In this document: positions 2,858-63,715 of the stretch, piece by piece
Numbering within the stretch: the first letter of the stretch is position 1
Layout: every line of letters begins with the position of its first letter
Assembly (NCBI GenBank): GCA_024516035.1
Contig: CM044965.1
Location: 25,299,493-25,363,492 of the forward strand
Direction of reading: 5' to 3'
Source of the DNA: Bactericera cockerelli
Lineage: Eukaryota > Arthropoda > Insecta > Hemiptera > Triozidae
Length of the DNA stretch: 64,000 nucleotides
Notes under the pieces: model-generated
The model's input: the letters and a program-made list of their open reading frames with translations, nothing else
The model's database searches: none
What the model was told of the DNA's origin: nothing
Made by a program: the position numbers and the translations under genes

Positions 2858-2977
2858 GGAGATGACGAAGTAAGGTCTCTGGTAGTGGGTGTTATACTTG
2901 TCGTTGCTGACCTCCAGGAGGAGAATGCAGGAGGCGATGAGGTAGAAGATGAAGGCACCTCCATGATAGATGAATTC
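2858..2977 (-). CDS. MARVEL-domain protein, exon 3
   Basis: Forty codons between a pyrimidine-rich acceptor (tttctgtctcgccag) and a gtgagt donor. They encode the third hydrophobic helix (YHGGAFIFYLIASCILLL), a short polar loop with NDKYNTHYQRP, and the start of helix 4. The acceptor plus about the first 75 nt of this exon are the source of the 97-bp array at 7161-7930. Confidence 0.93.
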
Positions 2978-3095
2978 CTGGCGAGACAGAAATAAACAAG
3001 TTTAATAATAATGTTTGATATCCATACCCATGTTCAAGGAGAAAATTCCTGGAGAGAAGGAAATAAACAAGCTTAATAATAATAATAATAATAAT
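2978..3095 (-). repeat. Partial exon-3 acceptor copy and (TAA)n run
   Basis: Positions 3012-3072 repeat the acceptor-side sequence (aattcctggagaga, aataaacaagc) joined to a short foreign stretch, tttgatatccatacccatg. The same stretch recurs once at 7268-7287. The copy ends in (TAA)n, where the LINE inserted, so this piece and the array at 7161-7930 were contiguous before insertion. Confidence 0.8.
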
Positions 3096-3283
3096 CCGCG
3101 TAAAATTCTGAAATTTTTCCAATTTAAAACTTCTGAATACTGTTTTTCTCAACTTTTCTTTGGTTTTATCGTGTTTGTTGGTTTGTTATTACCTATATAC
3201 AAGTGAAATCAAGGTAAAACAAGTGGATAATACTACCCATCAACTGTTTCTAGAATGGGTAATGTATTGTTCCATGCTTAAAT

Positions 3284-6200
3284 ATGTCACAATCACAACA
3301 AACATCGACTGGGAACAGAGGTTTTGCAAGGGGAATAACAACAAGAGATCATCGGTACTTGCGGCCCACATTCCAGTACCATCATGGTTCATCCTCAGAA
3401 TCCGAACCATCCTCATCAGACGACAATTACTCACCGCGGAGAAGCAATGTCGTAGCCAGCAATGCTTTGCTACCGACAACCACAACCTCTACTTTAGACA
3501 TATCTACTACCCGTTACTCAAACAACAATAGACCTGACAATCCGAATGATTCACCCTATGGACATTCCTTGTCGGTGTTATCTTCACCTGAATGTACCTC
3601 ATCACCCAGTACAACATGTCACCGTAATGAAAAAACGGGCCGTATGCGTTGGACTAAAGAATTAAATAAAAAGTTGTTATACGCATACTATCAATCCACT
3701 GAAGTAGAGACAAATAGGAAAAACTACCTATCAAGACTTGAAAATTACTGGCTTTTGCTTTGTCCTTCCTTGAGTTTCAATAAAAACAAGTTAGCTGGAC
3801 AAGTTAGATCAATTCTTAAGAGACAAGTGTTTACGACCCACGAACTTGACATCATAAAATCAAAAGTAAGGGAAGAATTTTTCCAGCCCGTTACTCAAAA
3901 CAACACAATAAACAATGATAATGATAATGACCAATCAAATCCCATAAATCAGGATCTTGAAGATAGTGTAACAGAATTAAACAATGTATCTGAAAATAAT
4001 GAAAGGAACCAAAATGAAAATAATAATTCTGCTGATATTATCGCCAAGTTTGATTCTTTTGTTGTACAATACAAAAATGTTCACATTGATGTAAAACCTA
4101 ATATTCCCAAAGTACCTTATGGAAACAAAACTTTGAAGACCGTTTTAGAGGTAAATGAAGCACTGAAAACCAAATTCAATTCAAGTAAAACTATATCTGA
4201 AACTCACAACTTAATTTACTGTGCTGCCCTAACTGTCTGTTTCTTACTCAATATTAAAACTCATGAAGGTAACCAACCTAACAAACAAACTAAAAGAACA
4301 CCACCATGGCTATTTAGACTTGAGAATCAAATTAAAAATATGCGAAGTAAAATTGGTACACTGACACACTACTTCAAAAACAATTGTCAAGTGTCATTTT
4401 CTGTAAAACACAAAATTAAAATGATAGCCCATGAGTTGAAAGTTAAATTTTGGACACCTGATTATAATGAAAAGTTAAAAGTTCAACTTGAAATATTGAA
4501 ACAAAGGTCAGCTGCTCTCGGATACAGAATCAGAAAATACAATAAAAGAAAGAAGAAGTACGAACAGAATAAATTATTTAGAAAAAATCAGAAGAAATTT
4601 TACACAAGTCTAAATAAAGAGAAAGTATCGGAAAAATCGGTCCTCCCCACAGCTCAAGACTTGTTTTCCTTTTGGAATAGCTTGTGGGGAGAAAGAAATG
4701 TTCATAATGAAAGTGCTGCTTGGATTAACGAAGAAAAAACAAGAATGACAAATACAAACAAAATGGATTCTATTAAGATCACACGAGATGATGTAACTCA
4801 AGCTGCTAAATATCTCAAGAACTGGAAGAGTCCCGGTCAAGATAAAATTCAAAACTATTGGTTGAAAATGTTCAGCAATTGTCATTTTATATTGGCAAAA
4901 CAATTTCAAGATTGTTTGACTAATCCTGACATGTTACCTGATAGTTTTACAAAAGGCATTACTTACATGATACCTAAAAATAAAAACACACATGATCCTG
5001 GTAGCTACCGACCCATTACCTGTCTTCCAAACATATACAAACTCTTGTCATCTATAATTAAAAGTAAAATATATCAACATGTCTATACAAACAATATTCT
5101 AGCAAAAGAACAGAACGGAATTAAGAAAAAGGCAAGAGGAAGCAAAGAGCTCCTAATAATCGATCGAATCATAACGAATCATGCTAAAAATAATAAACGT
5201 AATTTGTCAGTTGGTTGGATTGACTACCAAAAATGTTATGATTCTATTCCTCACACCTGGATTTTGCAAATACTCGACATCTATAAAGTAGATCCACTTA
5301 TTACCAAGTTTCTTCAAAGTACAATGAACAGTTGGAGTACGAAATTAACGTGTAAACTTGGAGAAAATACGGCTGAGATACGAACAGAAAAAATATTTTT
5401 CAAGCGCGGAATTTTTCAAGGGGATCCGTTGAGTTCGTTATTATTCTGCCTTTGCCTTAACCCTTTAAGCAATATATTAAACAACTCTCCGTTTGGTTAT
5501 AAAATAAACATGAAAGATAACTTCCAACTGAACCATTTATTTTACATGGATGACCTAAAGTTATACGCCAATGGTCCTGATCAATTGGAACATCTCATCG
5601 AACTAGTAACGATGTTTAGTGAAAATATATGTATGAAATTTGGTATAGAAAAGTGTAATGTACTTCATGTTAAAAGAGGAAAAGTATGTGATCCTGTAAA
5701 CATGACGCTTTCCAACAAAATCACTATTAAAAGTTTAAATAAAGGTGAATCATACAAATACCTTGGCTTAAAACAAAATTTTAACATTAATGATACAAAT
5801 ATGAAACAAGAGTATGAAAATATATTCATGAAAAAAGTAAACACTGTCTTGACAACTGAACTAAATGCTAAAAACAAGATTCAAGCCATCAATTCATGGG
5901 CTATTCCGTTTTTGATGTATACTTTTGGAATCCTCACCTGGTCCAAGACTGATCTTCAAAACCTCAACCGGAAAGTACGAATGGCCTTATACAATAACCG
6001 CTCACACCATATTCACTCTGCCACAGAGAGGCTCTATCTACCCAGGAAAGAAGGTGGGCGAGGCTTACTGGACCTACAAATGCTATACTATAAACAAGTA
6101 AATAAGTTCAGACAATATTTCATTGAAAACAAAACACCGTTCATGGAATATTTTAAAAGATCAGATTTCTTCACACCATTAAATTTAGCAAAAGCAACTT

Positions 6201-6505
6201 ACTCGATTTCGCTACCAAGAACACAGGAACAATTGAAAACAGATTTACTTGCTGGACCAATGAAAGGGAAATATCCTAAGTCACTTTACAATGACCCCTT
6301 TGTAGACAAAAGTCTCTCGACAGCGTATCTCACTGACGGTTACCTTATGTCAGAGACTGAGGGATTCATCCATGCTATACAGGATCAAGTGATGAAGACA
6401 CGAAACTACATGAGATATGTGATGAAAGTACCAATTGAAACAGATCTATGTCGTCTCTGTAACCGAGTCACGGAATCCATCCAACACACTCTCATCTGGT
6501 TGTAG
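3284..6505 (+). CDS. LINE polyprotein part 1: reverse transcriptase
   Basis: 1073 codons from ATG 3284. Residues about 1-110 are low complexity (Ser/Thr/Asn). About 118-195 form a basic Trp/Leu-rich block (RMRWTKELNKKLL) common in this LINE group. The reverse transcriptase spans about 510-860, with catalytic Asp 647 in IDYQKCYDS, QGDPLSS near 711, and Asp 756/757 in FYMDDLKLYA. A knuckle begins at Cys 1056/Cys 1059 with His 1069. The last Cys expected for a CCHC knuckle falls in the +1-shifted frame, so a one-base frameshift at about 6490-6497 ends this frame early at TAG. The protein would copy LINE RNA at the nicked target. Confidence 0.88.
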   Translation: MSQSQQTSTGNRGFARGITTRDHRYLRPTFQYHHGSSSESEPSSSDDNYSPRRSNVVASNALLPTTTTSTLDISTTRYSNNNRPDNPNDSPYGHSLSVLSSPECTSSPSTTCHRNEKTGRMRWTKELNKKLLYAYYQSTEVETNRKNYLSRLENYWLLLCPSLSFNKNKLAGQVRSILKRQVFTTHELDIIKSKVREEFFQPVTQNNTINNDNDNDQSNPINQDLEDSVTELNNVSENNERNQNENNNSADIIAKFDSFVVQYKNVHIDVKPNIPKVPYGNKTLKTVLEVNEALKTKFNSSKTISETHNLIYCAALTVCFLLNIKTHEGNQPNKQTKRTPPWLFRLENQIKNMRSKIGTLTHYFKNNCQVSFSVKHKIKMIAHELKVKFWTPDYNEKLKVQLEILKQRSAALGYRIRKYNKRKKKYEQNKLFRKNQKKFYTSLNKEKVSEKSVLPTAQDLFSFWNSLWGERNVHNESAAWINEEKTRMTNTNKMDSIKITRDDVTQAAKYLKNWKSPGQDKIQNYWLKMFSNCHFILAKQFQDCLTNPDMLPDSFTKGITYMIPKNKNTHDPGSYRPITCLPNIYKLLSSIIKSKIYQHVYTNNILAKEQNGIKKKARGSKELLIIDRIITNHAKNNKRNLSVGWIDYQKCYDSIPHTWILQILDIYKVDPLITKFLQSTMNSWSTKLTCKLGENTAEIRTEKIFFKRGIFQGDPLSSLLFCLCLNPLSNILNNSPFGYKINMKDNFQLNHLFYMDDLKLYANGPDQLEHLIELVTMFSENICMKFGIEKCNVLHVKRGKVCDPVNMTLSNKITIKSLNKGESYKYLGLKQNFNINDTNMKQEYENIFMKKVNTVLTTELNAKNKIQAINSWAIPFLMYTFGILTWSKTDLQNLNRKVRMALYNNRSHHIHSATERLYLPRKEGGRGLLDLQMLYYKQVNKFRQYFIENKTPFMEYFKRSDFFTPLNLAKATYSISLPRTQEQLKTDLLAGPMKGKYPKSLYNDPFVDKSLSTAYLTDGYLMSETEGFIHAIQDQVMKTRNYMRYVMKVPIETDLCRLCNRVTESIQHTLIWL

Positions 6506-7040
6506 TGTACTGGCACCAAAGGAGTATACAAATCGTCATAATCTTGTGGGAAACATCTTACATCAAGAACTACTGAAGAAGGTGACATCCAGTAACAAAA
6601 CACAAATTCCTCATTACCTCTACAATCCAGCTCCTGTCATTGAGAATGAACATGTAAAGATTTGTTGGAATTTACCTTTACAAACAGAAGTCAACATTAT
6701 CCACAATAGACCAGATATTTTATTTGTGGATAAAAATACTAATACCATCAATATTATCGACGTCACAATACCACTTGACGATAACCTGGCCCCAGCGTAC
6801 TCGCAGAAAATAAACAAATATGAAGAACTCAGGAGACAGTTGAAACATATATACAATACAAATCATGTAACAATTTTACCCATTGTCATTTCTTCAAATG
6901 GACTAATCCACAAAAACAATGTCAAAAATTTACAAAAGCTCCAAATTGAAAATCCGAATGCTGTTATAAGGAAATGCCAGAAATCCGTGATTCTATCTAC
7001 CACTAACATCATAAGAAAAATCTTGTCAGAAGAAATGTAA
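6435..7040 (+). CDS. LINE polyprotein part 2: restriction-like endonuclease (frameshifted)
   Basis: Continuation of the LINE protein in another frame. The useful part starts near 6497 with the missing knuckle Cys. The PD-(D/E)xK-type nuclease core reads RPDILFVDK then NIIDVTIP, followed by a Tyr/Lys helix (KINKYEELRRQLKHIY) and VTILPIVISSNGL. The upstream ATG at 6435 overlaps part 1 in the wrong frame and is probably not a real start. The stop at 7040 is followed by a 120-base 3' UTR. Confidence 0.82.
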   Translation: MKQIYVVSVTESRNPSNTLSSGCSVLAPKEYTNRHNLVGNILHQELLKKVTSSNKTQIPHYLYNPAPVIENEHVKICWNLPLQTEVNIIHNRPDILFVDKNTNTINIIDVTIPLDDNLAPAYSQKINKYEELRRQLKHIYNTNHVTILPIVISSNGLIHKNNVKNLQKLQIENPNAVIRKCQKSVILSTTNIIRKILSEEM

Positions 7041-7160
7041 CAAACGATTCATACCAAGTCTTTATTACCGTCATCTATGTTGCTTTGTAGCCCATAGACT
7101 GACGTATTACCTTTATTTTACATGTATTATAATGTATGTATCAATAAAGTGAAATCTCTT

Positions 7161-7930
7161 ATAATAATAATAGGAGAATGCAGGAGGCGATGAGGTAGAA
7201 AATGAAGGCACCTCCATGATAGATGAACTCCTGGAGAGACAGAAATAAACAAGTTCAATAATAATAATGTTTGATATCCATACCCATGTTCAAGGAGAAA
7301 ATTCCTGGAGAGAAAGAAATAAACAAGCTTAATAATAATAATAATAATAATAATAGGAGAATGCAGGAGGCGATGAGGTAGAAAATGAAGGCACCTCCAT
7401 GATAGATGAATTCCTGGAGAGACAGAAATAAACAAGTTTAATAATAGGAGAATGCAGGAGGCGATGATGTATAAGATGAAGGCACCTCCATGATAGATGA
7501 ATTCCTGGAGAGACAGAAATAAACAAGTTTAATAATAATAATAGGAGAATGCAGGAGGCAATGAGGTAGAAGATGAAGGAACCTCCATGATAGATGAATT
7601 CCTGGAGAGACAGAAATAAACAAGTTTAATAATAATAATAGGAGAATGCAGGAGGCAATGAGGTAGAAGATGAAGGCACCTCCATGATAGATGAATTCCT
7701 GGAGAGACAGAAATAAACAAGTTTAATAATAATAATAGGAGAATGCAGGAGGCAATGAGGTAGAAGATGAAGGCACCTCCATGATAGATGAATTCCTGGA
7801 GAGACAGAAATAAACAAGTTCAATAATAATAATAATAATAATAGGAGAATGCAGGAGGCGATGATGTAGAAGATGAAGGCACCTCCATGATAGATGAATT
7901 CCTGGAGAGACAGAAATAAACAATTTTAAA
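7161..7930 (-). repeat. Exon-3-derived tandem array with acceptor copies
   Basis: Seven units starting near 7173, 7356, 7447, 7544, 7641, 7738 and 7844, with a basic period of 97 bp. On the minus strand each unit has the pyrimidine tract, a ctccag acceptor, about 75 nt of MARVEL exon 3 and a (TAA)n linker of variable length. None has the exon-3 donor. The array lies in intron 2, 5' of the true exon 3, so each unit is a potential decoy acceptor. One unit (7258-7330) is a composite with the foreign stretch also seen at 3014. Confidence 0.95.
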
Positions 7931-8075
7931 ATAATAATAATGCTCGGTATACGGGTACAATGGTACATTTACTAACGGAACAATACCTAAATAAGGGGCA
8001 AGGACTTCGATTGTTATAGACCTACCTCTCTTTAAATAAATGTTCATACAGTACCTAAATAAAGAGGTGCTTTGT

Positions 8076-8148: not shown

Positions 8149-8365
8149 TTATACAAATTATTATACATGTCAAAAAACAAATTGAGAGGAACAATGTAAA
8201 CACAATTTAGAGAGAGAGAGAGGGCTGGATGATATTTTTTAAATTAAAAACTATCGAGTGGGGTATTGAATGAAATGGGTATTGATGTCCTCATGCCTGA
8301 TTGAACATTTATAAATTGATAGTTGAATCTGTGTGAGGTCTACAGTTCACAGAACTACTAGTTAT

Positions 8366-8863
8366 TATGCTGACTCAACTTACAAATGTGGTCTTAGCTA
8401 TGATGGAGGCTGTGCTGATCGATATGAGGCATGTCACGAGCAGCGAAAAGGTGCTCAGATACCCATCTCACACACAGGGAATTATTAATATGCTGACTCA
8501 ACTTACAAACGTGGTCTTAGCTATGATGGAGGCTATGCTGATCGAGAGAAGGCATGAAAGGAGCAGCAGAAAGCTGCCCAGATGCCAATCTCACACACAC
8601 GGAAATATTATTATGCTGATCCAACTTACAGAAAGCTGCAAAGGCGGTGAAATAAATGAATGAATAGCAGGATTTTGCTGACTAAACTTACAAACGTGGT
8701 CTTGGCTATGATGAAGGCTATGCTGATCGAGATAAGGCATAAAAGGAGCAGCAGAAAGCTACCCAGATGCCAATCTCACACACACAGAAATATTATTATG
8801 CTGATACAACTTACAGAAAGCTGCGAAAGCGGTGAATTATATTAATGAATAGCAGGATTTTGC
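8366..8863 (-). repeat. Exon-2-derived partial copies (donor side)
   Basis: Three degenerate copies (about 8369-8475, 8491-8590 and 8675-8775) of the 3' half of MARVEL exon 2 together with its gtaagt donor, each followed by a divergent spacer with cacacacac. They lie in intron 2 immediately 3' of the true exon. The flank tgctgactcaacttacaaa is repeated with them. Substitutions between copies show that the duplication is not an exact assembly echo. Confidence 0.9.
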
Positions 8864-8876
8864 TGACTAAACTTAC

Positions 8877-9065
8877 AAACGTGGTCTTGGCTATGATGGA
8901 GGCTGTGCTGATCGAGATGAGGCATGACAGGAGCAGAAGAAAGCTGCCCAGAAAGAAGGCGGTGGCTATGCAGATGAAGAAAGCCTCGGGTCGGTTGGAG
9001 GTGAAGTTGTGAAAGTAGACGTCTGAGTTGTAAATGTAGATACCGAGGATGATGGCACCGATTAT
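8877..9065 (-). CDS. MARVEL-domain protein, exon 2
   Basis: The acceptor is ctttcag before ATAATCGGTGCC, and the donor is gtaagt after ACCACGTTT. The 63 codons encode helix 1 (IIGAIILGIYIY), an extracellular-type loop with NFTSNRPE (an N-F-T sequon), and helix 2 (FFICIATAFFLGSFLLLL), ending SISTASIIAKTTF. Phase 0 at both ends. Confidence 0.94.
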
Positions 9066-15984: not shown

Positions 15985-16650
15985 CGGTTTTGTATAACTT
16001 TAACCACACACTGTAGTCAACTATGGTGCTAGGATTGGAACAAGAAGGTCATTTACAGTAAGGTCACAGTCATAAAGCCAAATATACAGTCATATTATAT
16101 TACCCATTCAATTGCTTACGTATTACTATGCAGTGAACAGTTGGAATCCAATCGCACTTCATTCCAAGAAAAGCTTATAATTCAATTATTGAATTATCAG
16201 TTATCAAGGACCAATGGAACATTTACATTATTATTAAATTATTTATTAGATATAAAAGACATACGGATAGTACAAATAAATATTACAAAAATTAAAAAAA
16301 TGGAAACAATATAAAAAAATGTTCATCCGTTGGTTCAAATCTCTGCACTACCTGGATTACCAGGCTAGCGCGTTAACCACTAAACTTGATACAATTAATG
16401 GAACAAACGTAATAAAATTAGTAAGTATAGGTAATCCGTGTGCGAGTAAGTATAAGTGTGCGAGTAAGTATAAGTGTGTGAGTAAGTATAAGTGTAATAT
16501 TCTCGACCTAGCAATGCACCAGCAGGTTTTCCTTTGAAAGATGACTAATAGTAATAATTTTACTAGTACTGAAGCGATAAGGTATTTTCTCAATTGCCAC
16601 TTGATAAGGCGTTAGTACTGAACGAACGTTAAACAGATCCTGTACCAGTT
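15985..16650. other. No gene recognised
   Basis: AT-rich. Contains the family B head fragment (16328-16382) and four 15-bp units of gtgcgagtaagtata at 16440-16495. Confidence 0.5.
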
Positions 16651-18216
16651 ACAACTTGTGCCAGCTTGAGTAGGCCGGGCAGAGTCTTGAGGTAGTCTAT
16701 TCTATTCTATTCTACTTACAACTTGTGCCAGCTTGAGTAGGCCGGGCAGAGTCTTGAGGTAGTCTATTCTATTCTATTCTACTTACAAATTGTGCCAGCT
16801 TGAGTAGGCCGGGCAGAGTCTTGAGGTAGTCTATTCTATTCTATTCTACTTACAAATTGTGCCAGCTTGAGTAGGCCGGGCAGAGTCTTGAGGTAGTCTA
16901 TTCTATTCTATTTACTTACAAATTGTGCCAAGCTTGAGTAGGCCGGCAGAGTCTGAGGTAAGTCTATTCTATTCTACTTACAACTTGTGCCAGCTTGAGT
17001 AGGCCGGGCAGAGTCTTGAGGTAGTCTATTCTATTCTATTCTACTTACAATTGTGCCAGCTCGAGTAGGCCAGGCAGAGTCTTGAGGTAGCCTATTCTAT
17101 TCTACTTACAACTTGTGCCAGCTTGAGTAGGCCGGGCAGAGTCTTGAGGTAGTCTATTCTATTCTATTCTACTTACAAATTGTGCCAGCTCGAGTAGGCC
17201 AGGCAGAGTCTTGAGGTAGCCTATTCTATTCTACTTACAAACTTGTGCCAGCTTGAGTAGGCCGGGCAGAGTCTTGAGGTAGTCTATTCTATTCTATTCT
17301 ACTTACAACTTGTGCCAGCTTGAGTAGGCCGGGCAGAGTCTTGAGGTAGTCTATTCTATTCTATTCTACTTACAACTTGTGCCAGCTTGAGTAGGCCGGC
17401 AGAGTCTTGAGGTAGTCTATTCTATTCTATTCTACTTACAACTTGTGCCAGCTTGAGTAGGCCGGGCAGAGTCTTGAGGTAGTCTATTCTATTCTATTCT
17501 ACTTACAACTTGTGCCAGCTTGAGTAGGCCGGGCAGAGTCTTGAGGTAGTCTATTCTATTCTTTTCTACTTACAACTTGTGCCAGCTTGAGTAGGCCGGG
17601 CAGAGTCTTGAGGTAGTCTATTCTATTCTATTCTACTTACAACTTGTGCCAGCTTGAGTAGGCCGGGCAGAGTCTTGAGGTAGTCTATTCTATTCTATTC
17701 TACTTACAACTTGTGCCAGCTTGAGTAGGCCGGGCAGAGTCTTGAGGTAGTCTATTCTATTCTACTTACAACTTGTGCCAGCTTGAGTAGGCCGGGCAGA
17801 GTCTTGAGGTAGTCTATTCTATTCTATTCTACTTACAACTTGTGCCAGCTTGAGTAGGCCGGGCAGAGTCTTGAGGTAGTCTATTCTATTCTATTCTACT
17901 TACAACTTGTGCCAGCTTGAGGAGGCCGGGCAGAGTCTTGAGGTAGTCTATTCTATTCTATTCTACTTACAACTTGTGCAGCTTGAGTAGGCCGGGCAGA
18001 GTCTTGAGGTAGTCTATTCTATTCTACTTACAACTTGTGCCAGCTTGAGTAGGCCGGGCAAGTCTTGAGGTAGTCTATTCTATTTATTCTACTTACAACT
18101 TGTGCCAGCTTGAGTAGGCCAGACAGAGTCTTGAGGTAGTCTATTCTACTCTACTTACAACTTGTGCCAGCTTGAGTAGGCCGGGCAGAGTCTTGAGGTA
18201 GTCTATTCTATTCTAT
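16651..18216 (-). repeat. Exon-1-derived minisatellite, block I
   Basis: About 23 units of 62-67 bp. On the minus strand each carries the last ~42-45 nt of MARVEL exon 1 (CTACCTCAAGACTCTGCC onward to CACAAGTT), the intact donor gtaagt, and a tagaa-type pentamer linker (two to four repeats). Units differ by linker length and point changes such as gaggagg for gagtagg. The block lies in intron 1, downstream of the authentic exon. Confidence 0.95.
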
Positions 18217-18459
18217 AAGTGGCCTAACAATGCTTTGCCATTATTGGCAGCTTCAACTGCATGTTCGTAATTTTTATTTTATTAAGTTATTTTTTACATT
18301 TTTAATTTATCATGAAGATGAAAGATTTGTTCAGCTGAAAAAAGCCCCACTCAGGCTGGGTGAGGTCAATGTGAGTAGCAGGTTTGTGAGTTTCCTGCGA
18401 ATGGAGGGTAAAACCCCCGTCGTGATATGACCATGGCAGTTGAAAGCGACGTTAAACCC

Positions 18460-18500
<41 letters not shown>

Positions 18501-18600
18501 ATCTTTTGAAAGGTACTAAAAAAAAAAAAAAAAAAAAAACTTACGACTTGTGCCAGCTTGAGTAGGCCAGGCAGAGTCTTGAGGTAGTCTATTCTATTTT
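18217..18600 (+). mobile_element. Headless SINE body M with long A-tail inside the exon-1 array
   Basis: 18336-18452 is the body module (ggctgggtgaggtcaatgtg, gaatggagggtaaaaccccc, tgatatgaccatggcagttg) followed by long A runs to 18538. Its insertion splits the minisatellite; one further exon-1 unit follows at 18540-18595. Confidence 0.8.
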
Positions 18601-18675
18601 AACTACATTTTTTGACACTGTGATATATTTAATTTTATTGACATATTTTTTTACCTTTATTGATGTGTTTAAGTA

Positions 18676-19544
18676 TACAGGGTGGGGCAAAAGTCTGGAA
18701 ACCCCTGAATAACTTTCGAATGGCTTCTTCGGTAAAATTAAAATTTTGTAAGGTAAACCGGGCTAATAAGACCTTCTTTTAGAGTGGGGTCAATTTTTGT
18801 TACCGGTCCCCATGTCGGGGCCAGGGGGGCCAACTTCATTTTTTTAAATACGAACCCCCACCTTGCGATACATTTTTGGAAAGGTCTTTAAATAAGAAAT
18901 ACATTGGTGCAAATTTTATTTTTTTAATATTAACTGTTTGCAAATGGCGTCCAACATTGTGTATGCAGTAAAGTCTGGAAACCCCTGAATATCTTTTGAA
19001 AGGGCTTTCTCAGTAAATTTAAAATTGTACACGGTAAGTCGGGGCAGTTAGACCTTTCCAAAAATGTATCGCAAGGTGGGGTTTTGTATTTGAAAAAATG
19101 AAGTTGGCCTCCCTGGCCCAGACATGGGGGCCGGTAAAAAAAAATCGGTCCCATTCTAATATAAGGTCTAATTACCAAGGATTACCGTACACAATTTTAA
19201 ATTTACTGAGAAAGCCATTTCGAAAGATATTCAGGGGTTTCCAGAATTTACTGCATACAGAAAGTTGGACGCCATTTGCAAACAGTTAATATTAAAAAAA
19301 ATAAAATTTGCACCAATGTATTTGTTATTTAAAGACCTTTTCAAAAATGTATCGCAAGGTGGGGGTTCGTATTTAAAAAAATGAAGTTGCCCCCCCTGGC
19401 CCCGACATGGGGGCCGGTAACAAAAATCGACCCGACTCTAAAGGAAGGTCTTATTAGCCCGGTTTACCGTACAAAATTTTAATTTTACCGAAGAAGCCAT
19501 TCGAAAGTTATTCAGGGGTTTCCAGACTTTTGCCCCACCCTGTA
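18676..19544. mobile_element. Long inverted-repeat DNA element (TA target site)
   Basis: 869 bp beginning tacagggtggggcaaaagtc and ending with its complement. The arms are several hundred bases long and imperfect, and include further internal inverted copies (cctgaatatcttttgaaagg). Flanking TA dinucleotides at 18674-18675 and 19545-19546 fit a Tc1/mariner-type target site. No transposase is encoded. It lies inside the exon-1 array in intron 1. Confidence 0.88.
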
Positions 19545-19620
19545 TATTGACATTTGTAAATAGGACTAGCTCGTTAATTAACACCTGTTTACCGGGCTTA
19601 TTATTATTTATTTATTCTAA

Positions 19621-49912: not shown

Positions 49913-52900
49913 CCGCGCGGCAGAGTGGGGTTACCTAAGCCACGGAAGGAGTGGACAAGGCATTCTCCCGCATGATAGCAGTGGCAGAGTGGGTTACCTA
50001 AGGCATTCTCTCCCATGATAGCAGTGGTAGAGTGGGTTACCTACGCCACGGAAGGAGTGGACAAGGCATTCTCCCGCATGATAGCAGTGGCAGAGTGGGT
50101 TACCTAAGGCATTCTCTCCCATGATAGCAGTGGTAGAGTGGGTTACCTAAGCCACGGAAGGAGTGGACAAGGCATTCTCCCGCATGATAGCAGTGGCAGA
50201 GTGGGTTACCTAAGGCATTCTCTCCCATGATAGCAGTGGTAGAGTGGGTTACCTACGCCACGGAAGGAGTGGACAAGGCATTCTCCCGCATGATAGCAGT
50301 GGCAGAGTGGGTTACCTAAGGCATTCTCTCCCATGATAGCAGTGGTAGAGTGGGTTACCTACGCCACGGAAGGAGTGGACAAGGCATTCTCTCGCATGAT
50401 AGCAGTGGCAGAGTGGGTTACCTAAGGCATTCTCTCCCATGATAGCAGTGGTAGAGTGGGTTACCTACGCCACGGAAGGAGTGGACAAGGCATTCTCTCG
50501 CATGATAGCAGTGGCAGAGTGGGTTACCTAAGGCATTCTCTCGCATGATAGCAGTGGCAGAGTGGGTTACCTAAGGCATTCTCTCGCATGATAGCAGTGG
50601 CAGAGTGGGTTACCTAAGGCATTCTCTCCCATGATAGCAGTGGTAGAGTGGGTTACCTACGCCACGGAAGGAGTGGACAAGGCATTCTCTCGCATGATAG
50701 CAGTGGCAGAGTGGGTTACCTAAGGCATTCTCTCGCATGATAGCAGTGGCGGAGTGGGTTACCTAAGGCATTCTCTCACATGATAGCAGTGGCAGAGTGG
50801 GTTACCTAAGGCATTCTCTCGCATGATAGCAGTGGGAGAGTGGGTGACCTAAGGCATTCTCTCGCATGATAGCAGTGGCAGAGTGGGTTACCTAAGGCAT
50901 TCTCTCGCATGATAGCAGTGGCAGAGGGGGTTACCTAAGGCATTCTCTCGCATGATAGCAGTGGCAGAGGGGGTTACCTAAGGCATTCTCTCTCATGATA
51001 GCAGTGGCAGAGGGGGTTACCTAAGGCATTCTCTCGCATGATAGCAGTGGCAGAGGGGGTTACCTAAGGCATTCTCTCGCATGATAGCAGTGGCAGAGGG
51101 GGTTACCTAAGGCATTCTCTCTCATGATAGCAGTGGCAGAGGGGGTTACCTAAGGCATTCTCTCGCATGATAGCAGTGGCAGAGTGGGTTACCTCAGGCA
51201 TTCTCTCGCATGATAGCAGTGGGAGAGTGGGTTACCTAAGGCATTCTCTCGCATGATAGCAGTGGTAGAGTGGGTTACCTAAGGCATTCTCTCGCATGAT
51301 AGCAGTGGCGGAGTGGGTTACCTAAGCCACGGAAGGAGTGGACAAAGCATTCTCCCGCATGATAGCAGTGGCGGAGTGGGTTACCTAAGCCACGGAAGGA
51401 GTGGACAAAGCATTCTCTCGCATGATAGCAGTGGGAGAGTGGGTTACCTACGCCACGGAAGGAGTGGACAAGGCATTCTCTCGCATGATAGCAGTGGCAG
51501 AGTGGGTCACCTAAGGCATTCTCTCGCATGATAGCAGTGGGAGAGTGGGTTACCTAAGGCATTCTCTCGCATGATAGCAGTGGCAGAGTGGGTTACCTAA
51601 GCCACGGAAGGAGTGGACAAGGCATTCTCTCGCATGATAGCAGTGGCAGAGTGGGTCACCTAAGGCATTCTCTCGCATGATAGCAGTGGGAGAGTGGGTT
51701 ACCTAAGGCATTCTCTCGCATGATAGCAGTGGCAGAGTGGGTCACCTAAGGCATTCTCTCGCATGATAGCAGTGGGAGAGTGGGTCACCTAAGGCATTCT
51801 CTCGCATGATAGCAGTGGCAGAGTGGGTTACCTAAGGCATTCTCTCGCATGATAGCAGTGGCAGAGTGGGTCACCTAAGGCATTCTCTCGCATGATAGCA
51901 GTGGCAGAGTGGGTCACCTAAGGCATTCTCTCGCATGATAGCAGTGGGAGAGTGGGTTACCTAAGGCATTCTCTCGCATGATAGCAGTGGCAGAGTGGGT
52001 TACCTACGCCACGGAAGGAGTGGACAAGGCATTCTCTCGCATGATAGCAGTGGCAGAGTGGGTTACCTAAGGCATTCTCTCGCATGATAGCAGTGGTAGA
52101 GTGGGTTACCTAAGGCATTCTCTCGCATGATAGCAGTGGCAGAGTGGGTCACCTAAGGCATTCTCTCGCATGATAGCAGTGGCAGAGGGGGTTACCTAAG
52201 GCATTCTCTCGCATGATAGCAGTGGTAGAGTGGGTTACCTAAGGCATTCTCTCGCATGATAGCAGTGGGAGAGTGGGTTACCTAAGGCATTCTCTCGCAT
52301 GATAGCAGTGGCAGAGTGGGTCACCTAAGGCATTCTCTCGCATGATAGCAGTGGCAGAGGGGGTTACCTAAGGCATTCTCTCGCATGATAGCAGTGGCAG
52401 AGGGGGTTACCTAAGGCATTCTCTCGCATGATAGCAGTGGCGGAGTGGGTTACCTACGCCACTGAAGGAGTGGACAAGGCATTCTCTCGCATGATAGCAG
52501 TGGCAGAGTGGGTTACCTAAGGCATTCTCTCGCATGATAGCAGTGGTAGAGTGGGTTACCTAAGGCATTCTCTCGCATGATAGCAGTGGTAGAGTGGGTT
52601 ACCTAAGGCATTCTCTCGCATGATAGCAGTGGCAGAGTGGGTTACCTAAGGCATTCTCTCGCATGATAGCAGTGGTAGAGTGGGTTACCTAAGGCATTCT
52701 CTCGCATGATAGCAGTGGTAGAGTGGGTTACCTAAGGCATTCTCTCGCATGATAGCAGTGGCAGAGTGGGTTACCTAAGGCATTCTCTCGCATGATAGCA
52801 GTGGTAGAGTGGGTTACCTAAGGCATTCTCTCGCATGATAGCAGTGGTAGAGTGGGTTACCTAAGGCATTCTCTCGCATGATAGCAGTGGCAGAGTGGGT

Positions 52901-52950
52901 TACCTAAGCCACGGAAGGAGTGGACAAGGCATTCTCTCGCATGATAGCAG
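49913..52950 (-). repeat. TMEM245 terminal-exon-derived satellite
   Basis: About 3 kb of 43-bp units (gcattctctcgcatgatagc, agtggcagagtgggttacct) mixed with 63-bp units that also hold ccacggaaggagtggacaag. On the minus strand the 63-bp unit carries the last codons and stop of TMEM245; the 43-bp form lacks 20 bp between two aag triplets. Between 49939 and about 50515 the two forms alternate as a 106-bp higher-order unit; later parts are mainly 43-bp. The right end merges with the genuine exon E. Confidence 0.96.
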
Positions 52951-53069
52951 TGGACATGTTGACGATGACGAAGAGACAGCAGAGGAGCAGAGGTCCTATG
53001 ATGGCGCCTTCCATCCCCAGCCAGAACACACCCCCCGCCACTGACAGGCCGGTCAGGTAGGGGTGCCCT
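52904..53069 (-). CDS. TMEM245, exon E (C-terminus and stop)
   Basis: The acceptor cttgcag completes a split Gly codon from exon D. It encodes GHPYLTGLSVAGGVFWLGME, then GAIIGPLLLCCLFVIVNMST and AIMRENALSTPSVA, then TAG at 52906-52904. A gtaacc directly after the stop looks like a donor, but the stop is in frame either way. The last ~45 bases are the template of the satellite that follows, so the 3' UTR probably runs into repeated copies of the coding end. Confidence 0.92.
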
Positions 53070-56234: not shown

Positions 56235-56475
56235 AGGTTATCATATTTGTGTTAATCACTTTCGTGATATCACAACTAATCAAACTAGCTTTACTAAGGG
56301 CGAAATTAATAGACGTTTTTGTAATACCTCTGTGGCGCCAAGTCACGGATTGCGTACTGTGTAAGATAGGGAAAATCGACACTTACCAACGACTTAAGTT
56401 ATTGATGTTGTCTATTAATTCCTCCCTAAGTCTACGCTGAACCCGAGACTTGAACCAACGACCTCTAGGTTATTA
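56235..56475 (-). mobile_element. SINE A interrupted by a MITE
   Basis: SINE A tail 56235-56298 and head 56425-56475 are separated by the MITE at about 56299-56423 (gaaattaatagacgtttttg to gttgtctattaattc). The SINE phrase ctaag flanks both sides, an apparent 5-bp target duplication. The 5' end of the SINE head is lost at the boundary with exon-D copies. Confidence 0.82.
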
Positions 56476-56982
<507 letters not shown>

Positions 56983-57294: not shown

Positions 57295-57798
57295 GTGGTT
57301 TCTCTTATATCCAATTCTCTTACATGCAGGTTCGACTGTACTAGTCATGCTCAGTGTAGCTTAGCAAAGTAATCTCACCTGAAGGTATGTAAACCAGTTG
57401 CACTTGGAACAGGATATGGATCAGCCAAGTCCACAGGCCATAGAATAGAGCCAGCTTAACAATCCTGTGATACTAGTCATGCTCAGTGTAGCTTAACTTC
57501 AGAGCAAAGAGATCTCACCTGAAGGTATGTAAACCAGTTGCACTTGGAACAGGATATGGATCAGCCAAGTCCACAGGCCATAGAATAGAGCCAGCTTAAC
57601 AATCCTGTGATACTAGTCATGCTCAGTGTAGCTTAACTTCAGAGCAAAGAGATCTCACCTGAAGGTATGTAAACCAGTTGCACTTGGAACAGGATATGGA
57701 TCAGCCAAGTCCACAGGCCATAGAATAGAGCCAGCTTAACAATCCTGTGATACTAGTCATGCTCAGTGTAGCTTAACTTCAGAGCAAAGAGATCTCAC
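57295..57798 (-). repeat. Exon-C-derived 140-bp array (donor side)
   Basis: Three partial copies of exon C (boundaries near 57341, 57473 and 57613) plus the unit ending in the true exon at 57753 onward. Period 140 bp (132 for the first, which lacks acttcag). Each has about 85 nt of exon C 3' end (GTTAAGCTGGCTCTATTC onward), the donor gtgaga and about 45 nt of intron. The copies are nearly identical, suggesting recent amplification. Confidence 0.95.
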
Positions 57799-57929
57799 CT
57801 GAAGGTATGTAAACCAGTTGCACTTGGAACAGGATATGGATCAGCCAGGTCCACAGGCCATAGAATAGAGCCAGCTTAAACGAGGCAGTTAGAACCTCAT
57901 GCACAGCTGTTTCTATGGCAACGGCTAGT
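57799..57929 (-). CDS. TMEM245, exon C
   Basis: The acceptor ctcttttccag completes Lys from exon B, and the donor is CCTTCAG/gtgaga. It encodes LAVAIETAVHEVLTASFKLA then LFYGLWTWLIHILFQVQLVY and IPS. This is an amphipathic segment followed by the FYGLWTWL helix that is diagnostic of the family. Only the unit furthest 5' (57929) has the complete exon. Confidence 0.95.
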
Positions 57930-58737: not shown

Positions 58738-58838
58738 TTGTTTCCATAGACAGGACTCACTGATGTGATGATCTGAACTGGTTTATACAACTTTCCACTG
58801 GAGCTGAGCAGGTAGAATAGACCCGTCAGGAATACAAC
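58738..58838 (-). CDS. TMEM245, exon B
   Basis: The acceptor gtctgccag precedes GTTGTATTC, and the donor is AACAA/gtaaga. It encodes VVFLTGLFYLLSSSGKLYKP then VQIITSVSPVYGN. No tandem copy of this exon was seen. Confidence 0.94.
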
Positions 58839-58899: not shown

Positions 58900-59523
58900 C
58901 TGGTTCTAGGAATCCAAATTCCGAAACAAGGACCCCCAAAACAAGGTTATTGAAAGTCTGATATTTCCACTTCTATTCTGACTTTGAATTACATATACAT
59001 TACAAAAGAAAAAAAAAGTAAATATGTTTTGTTTTGTTTTTTTTTTTTTTTTTTTTTTTTTTTTGTACTCAAGTATTGAATAGTATACTGTGTTTTTAGT
59101 AACTCTGAAAAAGAGTAGTATCATTTGTAAATAAATAAATTGTTTGTCTCTTCTCTCTTACGATGTTGACCCTCAATTTTACTTCTTTTTTCAAAAGAAA
59201 AAAGAAGTAAAATTGCTTTTTTGTACTACAAGTATTGAATTTAGTACTACAAAGTTTTAGTAAGCCTGAAAAAGAGTAGTATCATTTGTAAAATAAATAA
59301 ATTGTTTGTCTCCTCAGAAGTTAGACTTAGCTTATAGGAGATGTATTGTTTGTATTGTATACTATGTATACAATACAAACAATTTAAAATCAATCAAAGA
59401 CATTGTATACTATGTATACAATGTCTATGTATACAATGTCTTTGTTTGATTTTCCAGTAGGTTTTCTTTTTTTTTGTACTCAAGTATTGAATAGTATACT
59501 GTGTTTTTAGTAACTCTGAAAAA
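58900..59523. repeat. Intronic direct repeats from the exon-A downstream flank
   Basis: The phrase tactcaagtattgaatagta, then ctgtgtttttagtaactctg, then aaaaagagtagtatcatttg recurs near 59065, 59225, 59475 and 63302. The same phrase lies immediately 3' of exon A on the minus strand, so these are copies of the exon A flank without exon sequence. 59340-59450 is a set of gtatac palindromes. Confidence 0.8.
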
Positions 59524-62247
59524 CAGTGGCGGCTCCTGACTTCAAGACTAGGTGAAGACAAATTATACCCAGAAGTATTGAAAAAATAAAATTATTAATT
59601 TATCAGATCTTAGTTCTTAAATATGGTCTCATAAACACAGCCCATTGTAAGTTATGGCTGTTTCCCTGCAAAGCATGATTTTCTCTCATACCAGTTTTGC
59701 ATCATATAAGTTTTTATAGGTACTTTTTTTGGAGAACACTTGGTACTTAATAAATAAACAAGGCCAGCAGAACAATTTGTCAACACTTGAGCTGGTACAC
59801 AGCCATTCATTTTTCATAAGCCATTCAGGCTTGAACTGTATGGCTGTGGGGCAGGCATTTGCTTTACTTTTTTAGTGGTGGTTAGAAATTGGACATCCAG
59901 TAATCATAATATCTTTCATATCCTCATTACTTCTTAATCTGAATGGGGTTACTTTTAATGTTTGAACCCCATGATTTTGTGGGAATCTCATTGTTTCTTT
60001 GAAATGTTGTTATTAATTATTCATCTTAATAAAAATTATTAACTAAAAGTTGGTAAAAAGGAATTAAAATAAAAATATTAGGATTATACCTCAGTAGATA
60101 GGTAGGTACAACATTTTAAAGAGGGGTTAGAACTGGGAAGGAAAGAAAGTTAGTTGAAGACTAAAAATTACAATCCAAAACTGGAAGAAAATCCACCACC
60201 AGATTACAAAATAAATCTAAGAAAACATACTTACTACAAATATAAAATCAGCTTAAATTTGTGTTACCATTGATGTTTAAATGACTATTTATGAAAAACA
60301 CAGATATTGCCTTATAATTTTAAGTACTTCACTGGAAGCTGTGTGCTTAGCTACTTGCAACCTGCATAATTATAATATTATTTCTGACACTGAAAGAAGT
60401 ACATAGCTACTTCATATTCAACTTATTATGAAAAGCACAGGTCAGATCAGGTAGGAATAATGTTTCTATCCTGTATCAAATACTGGGAAATAACTTTATT
60501 AACTAGTTACACCAATTAAAAGTCACTTAATTACCGTTGAGAAGATTTGAAAATCTAATAAAATTTAGGGATGGGTAAATATTGAGCGAGTCGACTCGAA
60601 GAGTCGACTATTTCTGAAGAGTCGTATGAATCGACTCTCGAAGTTCTAAAAAATCGACTCTCGACTCACCGCTCATTTCCTTGTCTGGTTTAACCCACTA
60701 GCACTAGCCATTAGAAATAGGTCTGTTACCCACTGACGTCATCACTCAACATCTCATCGCATCGGTCCCGTCCTATAGGGACCGTCAGGGACGATTTAAG
60801 AATATAATCTTTCAAACTCTTGAATAGGATTGACTATGGCTTTATCCTTTGAAAACAAGTCTGTTACCCACTCAAAATTAATTTCTTTCTACTAGCTTCT
60901 TAATGTGATATCAGGGGATAAGTGAGAACTAGATGTAGGGGAGGACAATATGAATATTCAATATGAATCTACAGAACCGAATATTCTAAACGAGTCGAGA
61001 ATCCCATCCATACTCCCTAGACTACCTACTGAATCGACTACCCCCATTATCTAAGGTGAAACAAATTATACAGAATTTCAAAGAACCGCGACTCTTAAAG
61101 AGTCGACTCACTGAGTCGACTACTTCTGATGAACTGAGTCTACTGAATCGAATATTCTAAACGAGTCGAGAATCCCATCCCTAATAAAATTTGAAAAGTG
61201 CAAGTTTTGTTTACATTCTAAAGATAAGAGATACAGTGTTGCCAAGTTAATTTCATAGCTAAATTTCTACAAACTTCAAGAGCTATATTTTAAATTTAAA
61301 GAAATCCCTCAAATCATGTTGTAAGACGTATATTTATTTAAAAAAATAATACTACACCGCCTGAACAGAATTTTCTCTTGAGAATTTCATTTCAACACGT
61401 CTAATTTCATGATTTTTTTTAAAGTGGTTCCATAGTCAGGATCTTAAACAGGACCACCATTGTCCCTATTTAAAAACTTCTTGGAACAACTAGATACCAG
61501 ATTATCTTATTTGGCTCAATTTCGGTACCTACATTAAATAATTATCTCCGAGATTTGACTTCAATCGAGATGTCCTTTTTAAGACTATAGTTGACAAGAT
61601 ACATAAATAGTTAAAATTTATTGGTATCGGCTATCGTTTAGTAACTATGTACAAAACTAGAACCCAAAAAATGAAAATAATATCCAAAATTCCTGACACA
61701 AAATCCTGCTTTCCTAACGCCTACGTTATTATTATTATTATTATTTTTTTTAATATTACAAGATTGTGCTAGATATGGGAGGCTAAATCATTGACTGGTT
61801 TCCTAGGTCTGGCATAATGCTACTGGCAACAATGTTAATATCAAAAACACATGACATCGCACATGGTGGCTTCGTGACATTTCGTATGAGGTCGTGTAGA
61901 TAATGTAAACTGAATACAACTGAAGACTGTCCTCAGTAGCATATTACATAGATATAGTTCTTGCCTAATATTTCATGATACCTACTTGGAAATACTCAAC
62001 TCTGATTGGTTGATTCAAGGACAACTGAAGACAATTTCGAATTGTCTTCACATTTGGTGTTCTCCTTGGAAAGTAACATGAAATGTTAAGGAGCATTGAT
62101 CTATTTTACACAAAGCTTACTCTTTTTTTTTTTTTTTTCTTTGAGTTGGATCAATTGTGCCATGTTCAAGGGATTATGAGTAGTGTTTTCACTGTTCAAA
62201 ATTAGGTGAAAATGTCTTCAGTGTCTTCACCCGACGAGCCGCCACTG
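59524..62247. mobile_element. Large decayed hAT element
   Basis: Ends cagtggcggctcctgac and gagccgccactg, with 8-bp duplication ctgaaaaa at 59516-59523 and 62248-62255. The internal 2.7 kb holds short-range inverted text near the ends (ggtgaagacaaatt, aattgtcttcac), another hAT (60566-61183) and no readable transposase. Confidence 0.9.
60566..61183. mobile_element. Small hAT element nested in the larger hAT
   Basis: 618 bp with ends tagggatggg and cccatcccta and target duplication ataaaatt (60558-60565 and 61184-61191). Both subterminal regions carry gagtcgactc-type palindromes and gtcgagaatcccatcc. Non-coding. Confidence 0.93.
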
Positions 62248-62295
62248 CTGAAAAAGAGCAGTATCATTTGTAAAAAAAAAAAAAAAAAAAAAAAA

Positions 62296-62438
62296 TCGCT
62301 TACGATGTTGATGAAGAAGTTGAGCACCGCGAAGCCGCTCTCACACACGAGAGACACGAGAGTGGTGAGCGCCTGGATGGCGAGGCCAATGTTGGCTTTC
62401 ATCAGGAGCCACAGGGACTCGAGGCCAGAGCTCAGCAT
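62296..62438 (-). pseudogene. Truncated second copy of TMEM245 exon A
   Basis: 140 bp nearly identical to 63382-63520, including the gtaag donor but lacking the acceptor and the first ~45 bases. Two to three substitutions (ctggatggcg for ctggagggcg, caatgttgg for caaggttgg) change Leu to Ile-type residues but keep the frame open. Without an acceptor it cannot be spliced in as a normal exon. Confidence 0.9.
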
Positions 62439-62460
62439 TCATTGTATTTTACTGTATATA

Positions 62461-62712: not shown

Positions 62713-62742
62713 TATTTTACTTTGTCTTACCTGTATCTTCTT

Positions 62743-62945
62743 CTTCTTTTACTCTGTCTTATCCCGCTCAAGCAGGGTCGACGTTGTTCAACCTCATGGT
62801 TGAGATTGGTTGTTGGTTTTGGCACATTTTTTACGGCTGGAAGCCCTTCCGAACGCCAACGATCCTATTTGATTGAACGTCCTGGATTAGGACTGGGGTT
62901 TTACCCTCCATTCGCTGGGAATCGTACCAGCTACCCACATTATAT
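62743..62945 (-). mobile_element. tRNA-type SINE carrying body M, headless, inverted
   Basis: Inverted counterpart of 41960-42183: ttcttcttcttttactctgt, then ggatgccctt-like block, then body M to agctacccacatta. 5' truncated within the body. Confidence 0.85.
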
Positions 62946-63381
62946 ATTACAAAAAAAAGTAAATTTTCTTTTTTTTGTACTCAAGTATTTTTTTTTTTTT
63001 TAATACTCTTTATTTTTAATTTTATAATACAAAATACAATATTTCTGAAATAAACAAGTATAGATAAAGTAAAAAAAAAGAAATATACAAGAAATAAATT
63101 TATAAATAGAGTTATAGAAGAGTCCATGTGTGCTTAAAGCATGTGTTGGACTCTTCCGTCATAAAAAGTCTTCTAATTATATTATATTTTCAACCAACAA
63201 CGGAATAGTAATATATTATATTTTGTCATCAAAAAATGTATTTTCTGTGTAAAGGTATTTTTTTGCTTTTGTTTCTCTTCTAGTTCTATAATGTTTCTCT
63301 TCTAGTATTGAATAGTATACTGTGTTTTTAGTAACTCTGAAAAAGAGTAGTACCATTTGTAAAAAAAAAAAAAAATCTTAC
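62946..63381. other. Intronic AT-rich DNA
   Basis: 62990-63120 resembles a family F-type tail inverted. 63300-63378 is the exon A flank phrase also copied at 59065-59520. No other feature. Confidence 0.5.
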
Positions 63382-63566
63382 GATGTTGATGAAGAAGTTG
63401 AGCACCGCGAAGCCGCTCTCACACACGAGAGACACGAGAGTGGTGAGCGCCTGGAGGGCGAGGCCAAGGTTGGCTTTCATCAGGAGCCACAGGGACTCGA
63501 GGCCAGAGCTCAGCATAGCCATGTTGTTGTTCAGGAGGAGGGAGATGGTCCTCATGTTCATCAGCT
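63382..63566 (-). CDS. TMEM245, exon A
   Basis: The acceptor ttctgttcctcctcag precedes AGCTGATGAACATG, and the donor is AACATC/gtaaga. 61 full codons (LMNMRTISLLLNNNMAMLSS, GLESLWLLMKANLGLALQAL, TTLVSLVCESGFAVLNFFIN) end in phase 0 and fuse to exon B. Two hydrophobic segments. The first two bases complete a codon begun upstream of the window. Confidence 0.93.
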
Positions 63567-63715
63567 CTGAGGAGGAACAGAAGTACAGGGGGTCGCCATT
63601 ATTGTTTATTTATTTAACTTAATTAATTGGACATATTATATACAACACAGATAATTACAAATTAAATTAAAGTTCTGAGGAGGAGCAGAAGTACAGGGTC
63701 GCCATTATTGTTGGC
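63567..63715 (-). repeat. Exon-A acceptor-side duplication
   Basis: 63565-63602 (tctgaggaggaacagaagta, cagggggtcgccattattg) is repeated at 63674-63713 with an agg/gg difference. The two are separated by an inverted F-type fragment (63603-63668). The duplicate carries a second ctgctcctcctcag acceptor 5' of the true one. Confidence 0.85.

What the first reader, a model, noticed from the sequence alone, without database searches (positions are those of the whole stretch)
2858..63715. Exon-intron junctions of two genes have repeatedly been turned into tandem repeats
Seven of nine exons (MARVEL exons 1, 2, 3 and TMEM245 exons A, C, D, E) have extra copies of one or both edges in the adjoining intron or 3' flank. 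The true exon is always at the exon-side end of the array. Unit sizes differ (about 43/63, 67, 97, 140 bp), so these are independent events. MARVEL exon 4 and TMEM245 exon B show none. I know of no named process that systematically seeds minisatellites at splice junctions. This may be a genome-wide property of the species.
Basis: seen in the sequence. Interest (0 to 1): 0.92.

Follow-up and report, generated by a model that had tools for sequence, protein, structure and literature searches.

The report
Tandem-repeated splice sites across psyllid genes
In this psyllid (plant-louse) genome the edges of exons, above all the start signals of introns, have often been copied head-to-tail into repeat arrays inside the intron, more often than chance gives, which is a new genome-scale pattern in how genes and their splicing signals evolve.

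Summary
Seven of nine exons in the window have tandem copies of an edge. Junction-spanning copies occur at 7 of 16 splice junctions; the array at TMEM245 exon E spans the stop codon. The window lies in a 565-Mb chromosome-scale assembly; the best named protein hits are psyllids.

I extended the test. In 264 kb (CAD, MARVEL, TMEM245; 69 junctions) repeat arrays contain 10/34 donors (0.83 expected, P=2e-8) but 1/35 acceptors (0.85 expected). In myosin-head exons from eight contigs they contain 3/22 donors and 4/22 acceptors (1.1 expected over 44, P=2e-4). Genome-wide, CAGGTAAGT pairs 15-45 bp apart occur 793 times, against 14 for the backwards motif and 24 with GT changed to CT; many rows fall in a few arrays.

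Arrays span donors rather than lie near them. None lies wholly inside 6.9 kb of coding sequence. Copies keep GT/AG (0/340 positions changed). One paralogue pair shows a site before and after duplication.

Best reading: recurrent short tandem duplications of exon ends survive where a splice site hides the extra copies. The cause of the roughly tenfold donor excess is unproven.

The parts
20231..20355 (-). MARVEL exon 1 (5'UTR end + ATG; donor GTT|GTAAGT)
16649..20273 (-). Donor array of MARVEL exon 1: about 30 copies of a 67-bp unit (43 exon + 24 intron bp incl. TAGAA repeats), broken by a dispersed SINE-like repeat and a hairpin element
20346..20897 (-). Copies of the acceptor side of MARVEL exon 1 (79-bp unit; two extra copies carry CTCCACAG|ATCACGCCAA)
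8877..9065 (-). MARVEL exon 2 (donor TTT|GTAAGT)
8362..8952 (-). Donor array of MARVEL exon 2: four donors including the true one, units 123/185 bp
2858..2977 (-). MARVEL exon 3 (acceptor CGCCAG|GAATTC)
2919..3095 (-). True acceptor edge of exon 3 plus intron, matching the array at 7161-7941
7161..7941 (-). Acceptor array of MARVEL exon 3: 97-bp units (about 60 exon + 37 intron bp incl. TAA repeats), parted from the exon by a retrotransposon
3096..7160 (+). Non-LTR retrotransposon (RVT_1, 108 bits) sitting in the TAA repeat of the exon-3 array
2165..2239 (-). MARVEL exon 4 (no copies)
63382..63566 (-). TMEM245 exon A
62248..62438 (-). Second copy of the 3' part of exon A with donor ATC|GTAAG and following intron
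59051..59527 (-). Further pieces of the exon-A donor-side intron repeat (59051-59116, 59217-59315, 59462-59527)
59524..62247 (.). DNA transposon inserted between the exon-A copies: ends CAGTGGCGGCTC, 8-bp target duplication CTGAAAAA
63676..63715 (-). Copy of the intron side of the exon-A acceptor (exon part about 1 nt, not counted as junction-spanning)
58738..58838 (-). TMEM245 exon B (no copies)
57799..57929 (-). TMEM245 exon C
57339..57879 (-). Donor array of exon C: 140-bp unit, 3 extra copies of CAG|GTGAGA
56789..56963 (-). TMEM245 exon D
56426..56801 (-). Donor copies of exon D (3 extra AAGG|GTAAG-type copies, two joined to a fragment of a dispersed repeat)
52904..53069 (-). TMEM245 exon E, last coding exon (stop TAG, then GTAACC)
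49922..52956 (-). Array of 43/63-bp units spanning the end of coding, stop codon and the GTAACC that follows (about 50 copies)

Best explanation
Short head-to-tail duplications (units about 22-190 bp) that straddle the end of an exon keep arising in this psyllid genome and grow into arrays. The exon-side copy of the splice site keeps working. The other copies lie in the intron as decoys, so the protein is unchanged. Shown: the arrays, their number, their position across donors, no array found inside the coding sequence examined, and one site before and after duplication. Inferred: (a) births are local duplications needing little homology, followed by unequal exchange or slippage; (b) selection removes duplications inside exons but not those containing the splice site, because the true donor is transcribed first and used first; for acceptors the decoys come first, which would explain fewer acceptor arrays; (c) exchange keeps moving decoys into the working position, which would keep their GT/AG intact. 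What makes exon-ended units roughly ten times commoner at donors than at other positions (a birth bias for exon sequence, or some benefit of extra donors) is open.
For: Donors in arrays 10/34 vs 0.83 expected. Myosin sample: 7/44 junctions vs 1.14. Genome-wide donor pairs 793 vs 14 and 24 for controls. Without annotation: strong donors in 10/86 array units vs 2.5% of matched single-copy segments. Junction-specific: after donors, inner array edges 50-400 bp into the intron number 1 vs about 4.7 expected. None of 92 arrays wholly inside 6,895 bp of coding sequence, where 2.2 are expected at the intron rate; exon part shorter than one unit in 18 of 18; 4 of 18 units divisible by 3, so no sign that extra copies are translated. 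L035 has a single acceptor junction where its paralogue L034 has a 38-bp x3 array with a 2-bp AT match at the ends; L039 and L041, paralogous exons, carry arrays on opposite edges. Decoy GT/AG changed at 0/222 and 0/118 positions vs 66/1996 and 57/1055 within 10 nt.
Against: A survival filter alone cannot produce an excess over neutral introns, so step (b) needs an added birth or retention bias that is not shown. Acceptors are not enriched in the three-gene sample (1/35), and strong acceptor motifs are not enriched in units (3/86 vs 5.1%). A coverage-based null gives a smaller donor effect (10/28 vs 9-13% of random positions) and none for acceptors (2/29); the shift test in the window alone is not significant. 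Arrays that start 0-50 bp inside the intron are slightly over expectation too (2 vs 0.67 after donors, 3 vs 0.69 before acceptors). Zero exon-internal arrays against 2.2 expected is weak by itself. No RNA data: use of the first donor is inferred from the protein match only.
Confidence: 0.6

Rival explanations
1. The arrays are kept by selection: extra 5' splice sites bind more U1 snRNP, help exon definition or shield long AT-rich introns from early polyadenylation, so donor arrays persist longer than other arrays.
For: Donor excess without an excess 50-400 bp further in; all scored decoys keep GT/AG; the two terminal coding exons with arrays also carry donor-like sites at or after the stop.
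Against: Donor strength is the same with and without arrays (8.79 vs 8.96), so arrays do not mark weak sites. At array level the GT/AG conservation is modest (0/52 vs 49/468) and turnover could explain it. Acceptor arrays exist too.
Confidence: 0.2
2. Ordinary minisatellites born uniformly; overlap with exon edges is chance plus a reader's eye.
For: The genome is rich in arrays: 92 in 264 kb. A circular-shift null in the window alone is not significant.
Against: Founder-level tests in two samples, the annotation-free donor test and the genome-wide motif pairs.
Confidence: 0.05
3. A general hot spot near exons (GC-rich, open or transcribed DNA) for tandem duplication, with no link to the junction itself.
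For: Exon edges are GC-rich (0.52) against introns (0.33-0.38); arrays starting within 50 bp of a junction are somewhat over expectation.
Against: Arrays 50-400 bp beyond donors are not in excess (1 vs 4.7), nor before acceptors (5 vs 4.85); edges with arrays are not richer in GC than edges without (0.514 vs 0.524). A hot spot confined to the exon itself remains possible and is part of the best explanation.
Confidence: 0.1
4. Assembly artefact: collapsed or expanded repeats from long-read consensus.
For: No raw reads could be checked here.
Against: A DNA transposon with an 8-bp target duplication, a hairpin element with TA borders, a dispersed repeat and a retrotransposon sit inside arrays; copies differ by point changes; arrays are on several contigs; paralogues L034/L035 differ in a clean filled/empty way.
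Confidence: 0.03
5. Exon edges are carried and multiplied by mobile elements or retro-copying.
For: Some units contain pieces of dispersed repeats or simple repeats (TD donor, M1 acceptor).
Against: Copies are tandem, in the same orientation and next to the source; the filled/empty pair shows a plain duplication. Whether units also occur elsewhere in the genome was not tested.
Confidence: 0.03

Closest known systems
Human IFI6 (6-16) minisatellite with multiple splice donor sites (Turri et al. 1995)
   Same: A minisatellite whose repeats offer splice donors (only the title seen, as a reference entry in PMC4526556; details recalled)
   Different: A single gene; here a sizeable share of donors in four gene families, and donor pairs genome-wide
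[quoted passage not shown] potato RdRp, PMC4974935; AGGT repeats in two fission yeast genes cited there)
   Same: Tandem duplication of a segment crossing an exon-intron boundary or holding AGGT; splice signals inherited from the copy (abstract and introduction read)
   Different: There a new intron arises, in single cases; here existing introns grow at one end
Tandem (NAGNAG-like) alternative splice sites
   Same: Several competing splice sites next to each other (recalled; PMC3250501 seen in a search listing only)
   Different: Those sites lie a few bases apart; here whole 22-190 bp edges are repeated, up to about 50 times
Ordinary minisatellites (VNTRs)
   Same: Unit size, head-to-tail order, copy divergence
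   Different: Found across donors about ten times more often than elsewhere in the same DNA

Membership tests
Minisatellite | Head-to-tail units of roughly 10-100+ bp, several copies | tested here: met
Minisatellite | Copy-number variation between alleles | not testable with these tools
   One assembly only; paralogues L034/L035 differ in presence of an array
Minisatellite providing multiple splice donor sites (IFI6-like) | Each repeat carries an intact donor | tested here: met
   0 of 222 donor GT positions changed in 111 scored copies of 16 arrays; copies under 80% identity or not spanning the junction were not scored
Minisatellite providing multiple splice donor sites (IFI6-like) | Several of the donors are used in transcripts | not testable with these tools
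   No RNA data; 4 of 18 units divisible by 3 gives no sign of use
Intron gain by tandem duplication | A new intron absent from relatives | not tested
   Intron positions were not compared with relatives' gene structures; only proteins of relatives were available
Whole-exon tandem duplication (mutually exclusive exons) | Complete exon with both splice sites repeated | tested here: not met
   Exon part shorter than one unit in 18 of 18 junction arrays. Whole-exon copies (muscle-myosin-like loci L036, L037, L048) were not counted as arrays. L023 holds a 77-bp array that may contain a whole small exon; not resolved
Assembly artefact | Arrays without independent history | tested here: not met
   Elements inserted into arrays, diverged copies; raw reads not available

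The most novel reading that the evidence does not exclude
Psyllids (or this lineage) have a genome-wide process, mutational or selective, that targets 5' splice sites and turns a large share of them into tandem donor arrays, so intron starts grow by repeating the splice signal; splice sites would act as duplication seeds and arrays as reserves from which the working site is renewed.
Probability: 0.35. Interest if true: 0.9.

Novelty: new variant of a known kind. Interest (0 to 1): 0.78.

Why it matters
Intron growth is usually put down to transposons, and tandem duplication across splice sites is known from single cases. A genome in which about a quarter of sampled donors (13 of 56) sit in an array of copies of themselves is a natural experiment: it shows how a cell picks one donor among many identical ones, how short duplications arise at exon ends, and how far purifying selection shapes where minisatellites can live. 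It also warns gene annotators that exon-like, ORF-bearing repeats in such genomes can be decoys.

Tried and rejected
Circular-shift test inside the window: P 0.06-0.30. Kept as a result against a strong claim from the window alone; it is conservative because array length, not array birth, drives it.

Coverage control on 264 kb: donors 10/28 within 500 bp vs 129/1426 (outside junction arrays) or 192/1500 random positions; acceptors 2/29. It agrees for donors, not for acceptors.

Idea that arrays mark weak donors: rejected, scores equal. Idea that GC-rich DNA in general is the seed: not supported. Idea that TMEM245 exon E has an ordinary donor: withdrawn after the D. citri protein.

Counting errors corrected: the M1 donor was set one base off and two off (true exon end 20231); TB donor at 58761 and TE end as a donor; final counts are. 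The c20 donor was placed after its array had been seen, though the D. citri protein supports it; the myosin edges were placed by eye from motif and frame after the arrays had been seen, so that sample is not blind. Edges that could not be placed were left out: CAD c2 donor, c3, c4, c6 and c7 donors, c8 acceptor, c20 acceptor, c23 donor, c24, c25 and c27 acceptors, and exons in withheld stretches. In the myosin sample five close-paralogue loci (L022, L025, L035, L040, L049) were dropped before the count; none of their 10 scored junctions lies in an array, so with them the count is 7 of 54. Edges not counted there: L023 donor, L029 donor, L036, L045 and L048 acceptors, L050 donor. In one search six arrays of one 38-bp family were dropped.

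Wanted but not obtained: kinesin exons, a genome-wide count of single CAGGTAAGT, and an acceptor pair pattern; the genome search did not complete. In single-copy DNA of the 264 kb the relaxed donor motif occurs 8 times against 5, 19 and 16 for three controls, the exact motif 2 against 0 and 0: small numbers, but no sign that the pair excess merely reflects more single motifs.

Papers: 10 searches. None listed a genome-wide report of splice-junction minisatellites. Read: abstract and introduction of PMC4974935; one reference entry in PMC4526556; otherwise listings only.
Full report
WHERE THIS IS. The window is G000:C11:25299493-25363492 of a 565-Mb assembly in 1032 contigs. The closest named relatives are psyllids: MARVEL to Cyamophila willieti (79%), with a partial Diaphorina citri hit at 89% over 44% of the query; CAD to D. 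citri (90%); TMEM245 to D. citri (88%). The species is therefore taken to be a psyllid; the data do not name it.

WHAT IS IN THE WINDOW. MARVEL (4 exons) and the last five exons of TMEM245 lie on the minus strand. By a strict rule 7 of 16 splice junctions have local copies spanning them. The TMEM245 exon E array spans the stop codon, with GTAACC directly after it. Several arrays were later entered by other elements: a retrotransposon in the TAA repeat of the exon-3 array, a DNA transposon with ends CAGTGGCGGCTC and an 8-bp target duplication inside the exon-A repeat, and a hairpin element and a dispersed repeat in the exon-1 donor array.

CHANCE. A shift test within the window is not significant. 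The proper comparison counts founding units. In 264 kb of contiguous DNA (window plus 100 kb on each side) Tandem Repeats Finder gives 92 arrays after filtering (unit >=18, score >=60, not simple). I placed 69 splice junctions of CAD, MARVEL and TMEM245 using relatives' proteins. Arrays contain 10 of 34 donors (0.83 expected, P=1.9e-8) and 1 of 35 acceptors (0.85 expected, P=0.57); together 11 of 69 against 1.68, P=1.6e-6. With gapped or interrupted copies within 6 kb the counts are 11 of 34 and 5 of 35. A coverage control for such looser hits gives 225 of 1426 to 291 of 1500 random positions, so only the donor figure stands out there.

OTHER CONTIGS. A myosin-head search gave 77 exon matches; 30 loci of about 3.2 kb were read. 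After dropping five close-paralogue loci, 44 junctions on contigs C1, C2, C3, C4, C7, C8, C9 and C11 were scored: 7 lie in arrays (4 acceptors, 3 donors) against 1.14 expected, P=1.8e-4; with direct copies 5/22 acceptors and 6/22 donors. With the dropped loci it is 7 of 54. The edges were set by eye, not blind. Further arrays in these loci seem to carry edges of neighbouring myosin exons (L023, L026, L027, L044) and were not counted.

WHOLE GENOME. Two exact CAGGTAAGT motifs with 15-45 bases between them occur 793 times; the backwards motif 14 times; the same motif with GT changed to CT 24 times, its backwards form 15. Rows are not independent: the 100 rows listed, all on C1 up to 44 Mb, fall in 7 places, at least three of them one array family; the 24 control rows fall in about 10 places over the whole genome, none in that part of C1. 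By separate places the excess is therefore smaller than by rows; extrapolating 7 places per 44 Mb would give some 90 against 10 (rough arithmetic, not a count). The single motif could not be counted genome-wide; in held single-copy DNA it is not clearly overfrequent. Without any annotation, 10 of 86 array units in the 264 kb hold a strong donor against 2.5% of matched segments; strong acceptors are not enriched.

ANATOMY. In 18 arrays the exon part is always shorter than a unit and its share is spread evenly (KS P=0.50); 4 of 18 units are divisible by three; no array lies wholly inside 6,895 bp of coding sequence in 33 exons (2.2 expected). Around donors the excess is mainly in arrays that span the site: 10 against 0.83; arrays starting 0-50 bp into the intron number 2 against 0.67, and 50-400 bp 1 against about 4.7. 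Before acceptors the figures are 1 against 0.85, 3 against 0.69 and 5 against 4.85. Scored decoy copies keep GT or AG in every case: 0 changes at 222 and 118 positions against 66/1996 and 57/1055 within 10 nt; by array 0/52 against 49/468. Donor strength does not differ with arrays.

BEFORE AND AFTER. L034 and L035 are paralogous myosin exons on C1. L035 has one acceptor junction; L034 has three 38-bp copies (26 intron + 12 exon bases), with only AT shared at the ends, so no long homology was needed. L039 and L041 carry arrays on opposite edges of a paralogous exon.

HOW IT MOST LIKELY WORKS. Short duplications are born at exon ends and expand. Those inside coding sequence are lost; those that include the splice site are hidden in the intron. 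Because the exon-side donor is made first, donor arrays would be tolerated better than acceptor arrays, whose decoys are made first (inferred). Exchange within the array would renew the working copy and so keep decoys intact (inferred). Why units with an exon end are about ten times commoner at donors than elsewhere is not explained by this filter; biased birth or a benefit of extra donors must be added. I give 0.6 to the duplication-plus-shelter reading, 0.2 to selection for donor arrays.

COMPARISON. Human IFI6 has a minisatellite with multiple splice donors (reference title in PMC4526556). Intron gain by tandem duplication across a boundary is described in potato, and AGGT repeats in fission yeasts (PMC4974935). 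Those are single cases. I found no report of a genome-wide pattern in ten searches of an open-access library (listed in Tried and rejected), which does not cover most subscription journals.

LIMITS. One genome, no RNA, no raw reads, three genes plus one domain family for the junction tests, and a tool that mostly did not answer for the genome-wide controls.

Noticed in passing
window 3096-7160 (+): Non-LTR retrotransposon with reverse transcriptase (RVT_1) seated inside a TAA repeat, as recalled for Dong/R4-type elements; the reading frame is interrupted near 6503.
   Followed up: partly
window 59524-62247: DNA transposon with ends CAGTGGCGGCTC and an 8-bp target duplication, hAT-like by recall.
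   Followed up: partly
window 18677-19543: Hairpin-like element with inverted ends (ACAGGGTGGGGCAAAAGTCTGGAAACC) and TA at the borders.
   Followed up: no
window 14130-14206 and 46088-46202, and further arrays in the 264 kb: A 38-bp repeat family (CTGGTCTACTCCCTGTTTATAG), six arrays, that seems to sit inside a dispersed element.
   Followed up: no
C1 near 53.9 and 54.0 Mb, C3 near 29.0 and 29.2 Mb: Duplicated myosin gene pairs (longer matching pieces 85-98% identical), useful for dating array gains.
   Followed up: partly
25.20-25.29 Mb of C11 (left of window): CAD gene; its last coding exon carries an array with a very strong donor (GACAG|GTGAGT) about 50 bases after the stop codon, suggesting an intron in the 3' untranslated region.
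   Followed up: partly
L023:1-561: A 77-bp x7 array in a myosin gene that may contain a whole small exon with both splice sites.
   Followed up: no
G000:C1:29182930, 29309237, 29415196: The same 48-bp donor array (CAGGTAAGT...) at three places about 100 kb apart, pointing to a duplicated gene carrying its array along.
   Followed up: no
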